DNA of 64,000 bases, from positions 1-64,000 of the forward strand of contig NZ_RKLQ01000002.1 in NCBI RefSeq assembly GCF_019599405.1, read 5' to 3'. Below, piece by piece: positions 23,227-26,351 of the stretch (its first letter is position 1; each line of letters starts with the position of its first letter). A model generated the notes under the pieces. That model was not told the DNA's origin and ran no database searches. It saw only the letters and a list, made by a program, of their open reading frames with translations. The DNA is from Haloarcula salinisoli (GTDB lineage: Archaea; Halobacteriota; Halobacteria; Halobacteriales; Haloarculaceae). The position numbers were made by a program, and so were the translations under genes.

Positions 23227-25266
23227 ATGTCGAAAGAAAGCTCTCCAAAACGCGCCATCGGCTGGCGTACTGCCCTTTCGAAGGGCAGCGTGTTCCTCAC
23301 GACACTGCTTGCAGTCGTGGGGTTGACAGTCGCGGCAGCCGGCGGCGCAGTTGCCCTCCAGTCAGACGGTGAACCGGTCAATTCAGAGACCACCTACTAC
23401 ACCGGACAGGCGGTCACCGTTGACGGCCTTGACGCAAACGAGACGTATCGTGTCCGACAAGTGAACGCCGACGACGAGCCCGGAACGCTCCAACGCGTGC
23501 TTGAAAACAACGCGGGTACCATCGAGTTCACGCTCGACGGCACCCTCTCCGAGGGCGAGTTCGTCATCGTCAACGAGAGTGGGTTCGTCGTTCCGGTCGA
23601 CCAGGGGACTGCGGAGACCCCGCTGAGCCCCAGCCCGTCGCACACCCGATCTGCTGCCTTCGAAGTCGTCACGCAGGACCTGTCGACCGAGTTCGAGGAC
23701 CAGTCGACCAGCAACGATGGCACGGCAGCCACCGTAGAGTACGAGATTAGCTCCGACGTCCGGAACAACTACGCTGTGAACGTCTCCGCCGACGGACTGA
23801 ACGTTGACGACCTCAACGGCATCTTCGGCGACGCGAACACTACGCAAGAGTACCCCGACGAAGACACGGTCACGGTCAACCGCGGCACCACCGCCGAGGG
23901 GACCTACGACCTCGACTTCACGAACATCAGCGCCGACACCTACACGTTCGAAGTGAGCGTGACGGACGCCGATGCCTCCGACTCCGAGACCATCGAGGTC
24001 ACGGACACGGGCGACGCCCACCAGCCGGACGGCGAACCGCTCAGTTCCGACTCCACCTACTACACCGGACAGGCGGTCACCGTTGACGGCCTTGACGCAA
24101 ACGAGGCGTATGGTGTCCGACAAGTGAACGCCGACGACGAGCCCAGAAGGCTCCAGCGCGTGCTTGAAACCGACGCGGGTACCGTCGAGTTCACGCTCGA
24201 CGGCGCCCTCTCCGAGGGGGAATTCGTCATCGTCAACCAGGATGGATTCGTCGTTCCGGTCGACCAGGGGACTGCGGAGACCCCGCTGAGCGCCAGCGCG
24301 TCGCACACCCGATCTGCTGCCTTCGAAGTCATCACGCAGGACCTGTCGACCGAGTTCGAGGACCAGTCGACCAGCAACGATGGCACGGCAGCCACCGTGG
24401 AGTACGAGATCAGCTCCACCGTCCGGAGCAAATACGCTGTGAACGTCTCCGCCGACGGACTGGATGTTGACGACCTCAACGACATCTTCGGCGACGCGAA
24501 CACTACGCAAGAGTACCCCGACGAAGATACGGTCACGGTCAACCGCGGCACCACCGCCGAGGGGACCTACGACCTCGACTTCACGAACATCAGCGCCGAC
24601 ACCTACACGTTCGAAACGAACGTGACGGACGCCGACGCCTCCGACTCCGAGACCATCGAGGTCACGCACGGTGAGGCCGGCACGGAGGCCAGTCTCGACT
24701 ACGAGGGAGACACCCTCAACGTCAAGAACACCGGCGGCCAGACGATTTCCGGGAACACGACGCTCGATCCCGGTACCGTACTGTCGGTCCGTATCGAGAG
24801 CACCGACGACACCGACCAGTTCGTCTTCGAGTCCGAGGCGATGGTTCAGGAGGACGGTAGCTTCAGCGTCACAGGGGACTTCTCCGAGTACGACTCCGGC
24901 ACCGAGTTCGAAGTGACCGTCCTCGACGGTGACACCGAGCTGACTTCCGCCGACGGCGAAGTGGTGGCACCGACACACCTCGTGTACGACGGTGACACCC
25001 TCAACGTCCAGAACTCGGACAATCAGACGGTCTCCGGGAACACGACGCTCGATTCCGGAACTGAGCTGACGGTCCGTATCCAGAGTACCGACGACACCGA
25101 CCAGTTCGTCTTCGAGTCCGAGACGACCGTCCAGGACGACCACAGCTTCAGTGTCAGCCAGGACTTCTCCAGCGCCGAGCCGGGTACCGAGTTCGAGGTG
25201 ATCGTCCTCGACGGTGACACCGAACTGACTACCGCCGAGGGGGAGGTCGCCGAGAACGAAACCTAG
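23227..25266 (+). CDS. Repeat-built S-layer-like surface protein (prematurely stopped)
   Basis: 679 residues up to a TAG. A signal peptide (SVFLTTLLAVVGLTVAAAGGAVAL) precedes two nearly identical 221-residue units (663-bp direct repeats starting at 23365 and 24028, each with YYTGQAVTVDGLDANE, FVVPVDQGTAETPLS and DFTNISADTYTFE). Two BGTF-like units of about 95 residues follow (GDTLNV.N...TISGNTTL, TDDTDQFVFESE, GTEFEVTVLDGDTEL). Many N-x-S/T sites suit N-glycosylation. The same frame continues beyond the TAG for 178 codons with coherent protein (next entry), so this is probably a 5' part of a decayed or variable gene. The C-terminal anchor is not in this part. Confidence 0.85.
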   Translation: MSKESSPKRAIGWRTALSKGSVFLTTLLAVVGLTVAAAGGAVALQSDGEPVNSETTYYTGQAVTVDGLDANETYRVRQVNADDEPGTLQRVLENNAGTIEFTLDGTLSEGEFVIVNESGFVVPVDQGTAETPLSPSPSHTRSAAFEVVTQDLSTEFEDQSTSNDGTAATVEYEISSDVRNNYAVNVSADGLNVDDLNGIFGDANTTQEYPDEDTVTVNRGTTAEGTYDLDFTNISADTYTFEVSVTDADASDSETIEVTDTGDAHQPDGEPLSSDSTYYTGQAVTVDGLDANEAYGVRQVNADDEPRRLQRVLETDAGTVEFTLDGALSEGEFVIVNQDGFVVPVDQGTAETPLSASASHTRSAAFEVITQDLSTEFEDQSTSNDGTAATVEYEISSTVRSKYAVNVSADGLDVDDLNDIFGDANTTQEYPDEDTVTVNRGTTAEGTYDLDFTNISADTYTFETNVTDADASDSETIEVTHGEAGTEASLDYEGDTLNVKNTGGQTISGNTTLDPGTVLSVRIESTDDTDQFVFESEAMVQEDGSFSVTGDFSEYDSGTEFEVTVLDGDTELTSADGEVVAPTHLVYDGDTLNVQNSDNQTVSGNTTLDSGTELTVRIQSTDDTDQFVFESETTVQDDHSFSVSQDFSSAEPGTEFEVIVLDGDTELTTAEGEVAENET

Positions 25267-25803
25267 AACAACGAAACGGGCGGGAGCAGCACGCTCTCGA
25301 TGACGGCCACGTCGAACCCGACCCTCGACGGGACCGTCCGCGTGCAGTTCACCGTCGAGAACACCGGGAGGGAGACCACCCCGGTGATCGTCAACGCCAG
25401 TGACGTGGTCGCGCCGGACGCGCTGTCGCTCAGCAACCACTCGAGCCAGGGCGGCGTCTGACGAGCGTCCGCACACACGTGGCTGTTCCAGGACCTCGAA
25501 CCCGACGAGAGCGTGACGGCATCCGTCGACGTCGCGGTCGATTCGAACGCCAGCGACCATACCGTGACCGGCACGGCAAGCGGGAACGGCCAGACGGTGT
25601 CGGCGACTACAACGGTCGACCGCGACGGGCTGGCGACGGTCCAGGCGGTCGACAGTAACGATGACGATACCCTCGACAACGCCGAGGTCGTCCAGCCGAT
25701 CAACAGCTGGCGAAGCGACGACCCGGTCGGCGACTCCAACGAGACCATCACGAACGACGAGAGACGGGAGATAATCAACCTCTGGGAGCAGGGAGGCGCC
25801 TGA
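25267..25803 (+). pseudogene. In-frame continuation of the surface protein, with a second stop (TGA 25459-25461)
   Basis: Same frame as 23227. After the TAG (25264-25266) it reads a NEW3/CARDB-like domain (FTVENTGRETTPVIVNASDV...), then TGA, then RASAHTWLFQDLEPDESVTASVDVAV, and ends in a dockerin-like tail (VDSNDDDTLDNAEVVQPINSW... ITNDERREIINLWEQG). The next gene has GGVWRDDRSWLFQSVEAGGSV where this one has GGV-stop-RASAHTWLFQDLEPDESV, so the TGA replaces a conserved Trp (TGG). The last 96 codons could be translated from an internal start at 25513. Its stop overlaps the next start (TGATG, 25801-25805), so they once formed one operon. Confidence 0.75.
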
Positions 25804-26351
25804 TGAGATGGGGAACGACTGCCACCGTGGCGATGCTGCTGGTCGTGCTGGCCACAGCTCCCGTCACAGCCCAGTCGGACGCCACCAGCCTGACGGCCAC
25901 CGCCGGCGAGGCGACGCCCGGCGAGACGGTCACGCTGACCTTCGAGTTCGCAAACAACGGTGACGAACCGATTGCGACTATCGTCTCCGTCAGCGAACTG
26001 CCCGACGACTGGACCGTCCAGTCCCACGCGGACGACGGCGGCGTCTGGCGCGATGACCGCTCGTGGCTCTTCCAGAGCGTCGAGGCCGGCGGTTCGGTCG
26101 CGCCCTCGATAACGGTGGCCGTGCCGGACGACGCGACGGACCCGGTCACTGTCGCGGGGAACGCGATGGTTGGTAACAAGACCGTGACGGGCCAGACGAC
26201 GGTCACGGTTGCCGAGAGCCAGGCGACGGCGACCGGCGAGTCCAGCCAGACGCCGACCGGGACGAGCGACGGCTCCGGCCCCGGGTTCGGGGTCGGCACA
26301 GCCCTCGCGGCGGCGCTCGGACTGGCGCTCGTCATCGGCCGGTCACAGTAG
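25803..26351 (+). CDS. Secreted PGF-CTERM protein with NEW3/CARDB-like domain
   Basis: 182 residues. A signal peptide (TATVAMLLVVLATAPVTAQS) is followed by one beta-sandwich domain (TLTFEFANNGDEPIATIVSVSELPDDWTV, GGVWRDDRSWLFQSVEAGGSVAPSITVAV), a Thr-rich linker and the sorting signal GSGPGFGVGTALAAALGLALVIGRSQ. It should be lipid-anchored by archaeosortase. The start codon overlaps the stop of the dockerin-like end of the preceding reading frame by one base, and the domain is a paralogue of that frame's 3' part. The pair suggests a cohesin/dockerin-like surface assembly, which is an inference. Confidence 0.83.
   Translation: MRWGTTATVAMLLVVLATAPVTAQSDATSLTATAGEATPGETVTLTFEFANNGDEPIATIVSVSELPDDWTVQSHADDGGVWRDDRSWLFQSVEAGGSVAPSITVAVPDDATDPVTVAGNAMVGNKTVTGQTTVTVAESQATATGESSQTPTGTSDGSGPGFGVGTALAAALGLALVIGRSQ

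What the first reader, a model, noticed from the sequence alone, without database searches (positions are those of the whole stretch)
23227..25803. Surface-protein gene with two in-frame stops, one replacing a conserved Trp
From 23227 a single frame continues to 25803, broken only by TAG (25264) and TGA (25459). The text on both sides is coherent: signal peptide, duplicated domains, BGTF units, a NEW3/CARDB-like domain, then a dockerin-like tail. The paralogous next gene has GGVWRDDRSWLFQ where this one has GGV-TGA-RASAHTWLFQ, so TGA arose from TGG. TAG fits a CAG (Gln) origin (ENET-Q-NNE). Both changes are transitions of the C-to-T type on one or the other strand. The open frame's stop overlaps the next start (TGATG), so loss has polar consequences unless read-through or internal starts occur.
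Basis: partly seen in the sequence, partly recalled or inferred. Interest (0 to 1): 0.65.

Follow-up and report, generated by a model that had tools for sequence, protein, structure and literature searches.

The report
Broken S-layer-like gene beside its anchor
In a salt-loving archaeon (genus Haloarcula), a gene resembling the cell's protein-coat (S-layer) gene carries two stop codons that cut off its last fifth, including a tail that probably fastens the protein to a membrane-anchored partner made by the next gene; this looks like ordinary recent gene decay, though the tail-and-anchor pairing recurs in related organisms and seems little studied.

Summary
In detail: one frame runs 23227-25803, broken only by TAG (25264) and TGA (25459). 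They are the only stops in the 64 kb window flanked by coding signal on both sides, so they are neither chance nor general assembly noise. No suppressor tRNA, tRNA-Sec or PylRS was found in the genome, so stop reassignment is unlikely. Gene 1 is a paralogue of the genome's intact S-layer glycoprotein: its N-terminal domain is duplicated (recently, dS 0.08) and it has two BGTF units, but a NEW3 domain and a dockerin-like tail replace the usual PGF-CTERM anchor. Gene 2 (25803-26351) is signal peptide + NEW3 + PGF-CTERM. A Haloarcula MAG keeps the tail intact (67% identity; dN/dS 0.39) followed by the same overlap and gene 2. Across haloarchaea, 15 of 53 C-terminal tails are followed directly by a NEW3 gene, against 0 of 98 other ORFs. 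So the frame naturally continues beyond the TAG; gene 1 is most likely a recently truncated gene or early pseudogene beside an intact anchor gene. A third pair in this genome has also lost its gene-1 body while keeping gene 2. TGA from TGG is well supported; a CAG origin of the TAG is not shown. Sequencing error cannot be excluded from one assembly.

The parts
23227..25263 (+). open part of gene 1, 679 aa: signal peptide, S-layer-like N-terminal domain in two tandem copies (codons 44-266 and 267-480), two BGTF surface units (about 485-678)
25264..25266 (+). first in-frame stop, TAG, in the linker after the second BGTF unit
25267..25458 (+). NEW3 domain, first half, in frame after the TAG
25459..25461 (+). 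second in-frame stop, TGA, at the position of the NEW3 aromatic residue (Trp in close homologues)
25462..25635 (+). NEW3 domain, second half, and linker
25636..25800 (+). dockerin-like C-terminal tail (about 55 aa)
25801..25805 (+). TGATG: stop of gene 1 overlapping the start of gene 2
25803..26351 (+). gene 2: signal peptide, NEW3 domain, PGF-CTERM membrane-anchor signal (182 aa), intact

Best explanation
Gene 1 is an S-layer-derived surface-protein gene whose product was held on the cell in trans: instead of its own PGF-CTERM it carries a NEW3 domain and a dockerin-like tail, and the overlapping gene 2 encodes a small NEW3 protein with a PGF-CTERM lipid anchor. In this strain two nonsense substitutions have recently cut off the NEW3 domain and tail. 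Only a 679-residue, anchorless protein can be made, so it is lost from the cell surface or degraded; translation of gene 2, which starts at the old stop codon, probably now depends on its own initiation. Shown: the stops, the coding character beyond them, the intact tail and overlap in a relative, the recurrence of tail plus NEW3 gene pairs, the lack of stop-decoding machinery. Inferred: docking of the tail to the NEW3 partner, loss of anchoring, effect on gene 2.
For: Stops unique in the window. Post-stop region keeps codon usage and frame to TGATG. A Haloarcula MAG has an uninterrupted tail with the same overlap; dN/dS 0.39 over 93 codons, p 0.0015, so the tail was under selection for most of the divergence. 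Tail-to-NEW3 adjacency: 15 of 53 C-terminal tails against 0 of 98 other ORFs; among tails not used to build the model 6 of 35, p 0.0002, or three independent lineages, p 0.017. No suppressor anticodon, and no tRNA-Sec or PylS above cut-off. The genome has an intact S-layer gene with its own PGF-CTERM, so gene 1 may be dispensable. A second damaged gene 1 beside an intact gene 2 lies at G000:C2:969k: signal-peptide start joined directly to the tail.
Against: No intact orthologue of the whole of gene 1 was found: the MAG contig begins inside the NEW3-tail region, downstream of the TGA position, and no other tail protein in the fetched loci carries S-layer-like or BGTF domains, so the fusion itself is unconfirmed elsewhere. 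One assembly only; a sequence error cannot be ruled out. Both stops lie in the last 21% of the frame (chance about 0.04 for two random stops, own arithmetic), which may mean that the 679-aa product is still useful rather than decaying.
Confidence: 0.7

Rival explanations
1. Module swap: an S-layer-like cassette replaced the front of an older NEW3-and-tail gene, and the TAG is the real end of the new protein; the downstream frame is a remnant.
For: No other protein joining S-layer or BGTF domains to this tail was found; bodies of tail proteins differ widely; a collapsed gene 1 exists at G000:C2:969k.
Against: The two parts are in frame (1 in 3 by chance), the TAG lies inside a uniform ENET-x-NNETGG linker rather than at a break, and the S-layer-like part has no anchor of its own.
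Confidence: 0.15
2. Sequence or assembly error at one or both stops in an otherwise intact gene.
For: Only one assembly is available and no reads could be inspected; the frame is otherwise clean with no frameshift.
Against: No other coding-frame stop in 64 kb; two independent substitutions within 200 bases would be needed; the stops do not lie in the repeated part of the gene.
Confidence: 0.1
3. Programmed or ordinary stop read-through yields some full-length anchored protein.
For: The region after the stops still looks like coding sequence.
Against: No suppressor, Sec or Pyl machinery found; two different stops would have to be read; homologues have an aromatic sense codon, mostly Trp, at the TGA position.
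Confidence: 0.04

Closest known systems
Haloarchaeal S-layer glycoproteins with BGTF domain and PGF-CTERM (NCBIfam NF041335, TIGR04216, NF045517)
   Same: N-terminal domain 52% identical to the genome's own S-layer glycoprotein, and BGTF units
   Different: middle domains missing, N-terminal and BGTF parts each doubled, no Thr-rich stalk or PGF-CTERM; NEW3 and tail instead; two stops
Cohesin-dockerin surface attachment, reported for archaea such as Archaeoglobus and ANME (PMC9012536)
   Same: short C-terminal calcium-loop-like tail on varied surface proteins, paired with an anchored beta-sandwich partner
   Different: partner domain is NEW3 (NPCBM_assoc), not a recognised cohesin; tail matches no dockerin model, only weak EF-hand; binding untested
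Ordinary nonsense pseudogenes, common in some haloarchaea (for example Haloquadratum, PMC3119063)
   Same: point stops in a paralogue of a gene that is intact elsewhere in the genome
   Different: damage limited to the 3' fifth of the gene; partner gene intact

Membership tests
ArtA-dependent haloarchaeal S-layer glycoprotein | full-length match to the equivalog model | tested here: not met
   96 bits against a cut-off of 1100; the genome's own S-layer paralogue also misses the cut-off, at 268 bits
ArtA-dependent haloarchaeal S-layer glycoprotein | C-terminal PGF-CTERM sorting signal | tested here: not met
   absent from gene 1, present in gene 2 and in the paralogue
BGTF surface-domain proteins | NF045517 domain above cut-off | tested here: met
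   142.7 bits against 40, two stretches
dockerin-bearing proteins | match to a curated dockerin model | tested here: not met
   six tails, no dockerin hit in Pfam or NCBIfam; weak EF-hand only
cohesin-type anchor (gene 2) | cohesin fold specifically | tested here: inconclusive
   confident Ig-like sandwich; one cohesin-containing entry among many generic matches
NEW3 / NPCBM_assoc domain (gene 2) | PF10633 above gathering score | tested here: met
   30.7 bits against 24.4
pseudogene | in-frame disruption relative to an intact homologue | tested here: inconclusive
   two stops; the relative's tail is uninterrupted, but its contig does not reach back to the two stop positions, so only domain-level homologues cover the TGA site
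pseudogene | loss of function or expression | not testable with these tools
   needs transcript or protein data

The most novel reading that the evidence does not exclude
Haloarchaea use a two-gene anchoring scheme in which secreted or surface proteins, here even an S-layer-like protein, carry a dockerin-like tail that docks to a NEW3 protein lipid-anchored by archaeosortase and encoded by an overlapping gene; loss of the tail by nonsense mutation turns an anchored protein into a released one.
Probability: 0.3. Interest if true: 0.6.

Novelty: new member of a known kind. Interest (0 to 1): 0.3.

Why it matters
As a broken gene it is ordinary. It matters mainly as a pointer: the intact relatives show a recurrent tail-plus-anchor gene pair, a simple testable idea for how haloarchaeal surface proteins without their own lipid anchor stay on the cell.

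Tried and rejected
Stop reassignment or suppression: rejected for lack of any suppressor tRNA, tRNA-Sec or PylS (one intron-type tRNA-like hit, L189, could not be assigned by ARAGORN, but by eye its candidate loop holds no stop-reading anticodon). General assembly noise: rejected by the window-wide scan. Close copies in viral contigs and plasmid records: none found. Structure of the NEW3-plus-tail piece: tail too poorly modelled to use. Fold search of gene 2 gave only a generic Ig-like sandwich. The dN/dS of NEW3 between genes 1 and 2 printed was run in a wrong frame and is not used. Promoter and terminator scan gave nothing useful for an archaeon.

Full report
Observation. The frame from 23227 reads through 858 codons to a TGA at 25801-25803, with TAG at 25264 and TGA at 25459 as the only interruptions. 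A codon-usage score trained on this window stays high before, between and after the stops, and a scan of every stop codon on both strands for coding signal in the same frame on both sides returned only these two.

What gene 1 is. The N-terminal 272 residues are 52% identical to the genome's own S-layer glycoprotein at G000:C1:1664579, which is intact, 759 aa, and ends in PGF-CTERM. In gene 1 that N-terminal domain occurs twice in tandem, with dS 0.08 and dN 0.06 between the copies, so the duplication is recent. Two BGTF units follow. The S-layer middle domains, the Thr-rich stalk and the PGF-CTERM are missing. Instead, beyond the TAG, there is a NEW3 domain and a 55-residue dockerin-like tail.

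What gene 2 is. 25803-26351 encodes a signal peptide, a NEW3 domain (PF10633, above its gathering score) and a PGF-CTERM signal. Its NEW3 domain is about 41% identical to that of gene 1 and is predicted with high confidence as an Ig-like sandwich. It has no damage. A homologue in G008 stands alone after an unrelated gene, so gene 2 does not strictly need a gene 1 next to it.

Does the frame naturally end at the TAG? The nearest relative, a Haloarcula MAG (L049, same as G010), has the tail uninterrupted for 93 codons from its contig start, then the same overlap with a 76% identical gene 2; its contig does not reach back to the two stop positions. Between the two tails dS is 0.47 and dN 0.18 (ratio 0.39, p 0.0015), comparable with gene 2 (0.55), so the tail was under selection for most of the separation. 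In more distant haloarchaea, proteins with this tail have very different bodies, but 15 of 53 C-terminal tails are followed within 260 bases by a NEW3 domain in the next gene on the same strand, against 0 of 98 other ORFs in the same loci. Several of these were used to build the tail model; among those that were not, 6 of 35 have the neighbour (p 0.0002), from three independent lineages (p 0.017). So a tail followed by an overlapping NEW3 gene is a recurrent layout, and the sequence after the TAG belongs to it.

Origin of the stops. At the TGA, nine of ten close NEW3 homologues have Trp; in a wider set of 37 the column is mostly aromatic (W 13, Y 9, F 5). TGG is the best precursor. For the TAG nothing aligned identifies the codon: GAG is used 56 times and CAG 28 times in this gene and both fit the acidic linker.

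Can the stops be read? Of 42 tRNA hits in the genome, 41 have ordinary anticodons and none reads a stop; one intron-type hit is unassigned. tRNA-Sec and PylS gave no match above cut-off in this genome, while known users among the controls did. Two different stops in one gene make a dedicated read-through system unlikely.

Mechanism. The most likely reading is a surface protein meant to be held in trans by the anchored gene 2 product, now truncated to 679 residues with no anchor. The docking of tail to NEW3 is inferred from gene pairing and from the EF-hand-like loop in the tail (weak sequence matches); no dockerin or cohesin model matches, so membership in that family is not claimed. The literature held here describes cohesin and dockerin pairs in other archaea, including S-layer proteins with dockerins in ANME (PMC9012536), and dockerin-annotated enzymes in haloarchaea (PMC10963439); I found no account of a tail-NEW3 pair, within the limits of an open-access library.

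A parallel case. In the same genome two further pairs are intact (G000:C2:688k and 972k), and a third at 969k has a gene 1 reduced to its signal-peptide start joined to the tail, 98 aa, overlapping an intact gene 2. Gene 1 bodies therefore seem free to decay while anchor genes persist.

Limits. No intact full-length orthologue of gene 1 was found, and no other tail protein in the fetched loci has S-layer-like domains, so a module swap with the TAG as true end remains possible. Both stops fall in the last 21% of the frame, which has a chance of about 0.04 for two random stops (own arithmetic) and could mean that the 679-aa part is still kept. Reads were not available, so a sequence error stays possible.

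Noticed in passing
G000:C2 about 969400-970030 (L115, minus strand; L064): A 98-aa ORF in which a Tat-type signal start is joined directly to a dockerin-like tail, overlapping an intact NEW3 anchor gene: the body of the surface protein has been deleted.
   Followed up: partly
L132 (G083:C2:1244500-1264400) and L145/L053 (G013:C1:1019000-1026000): S-layer-like BGTF proteins with a NEW3-like domain at their N-terminus, encoded next to proteins with the dockerin-like tail; suggests that the S-layer itself may be the docking partner in some species.
   Followed up: no
L117-L120, L123, L128, L129 (several genera): Very long proteins (about 2100-2600 aa) with the dockerin-like tail motif in their middle rather than at the C-terminus.
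   Followed up: no
window 23356-24669: Recent tandem duplication of the S-layer-like N-terminal domain (215 aligned codons, dS 0.08, dN 0.06) with no indel or stop inside the copies.
   Followed up: partly
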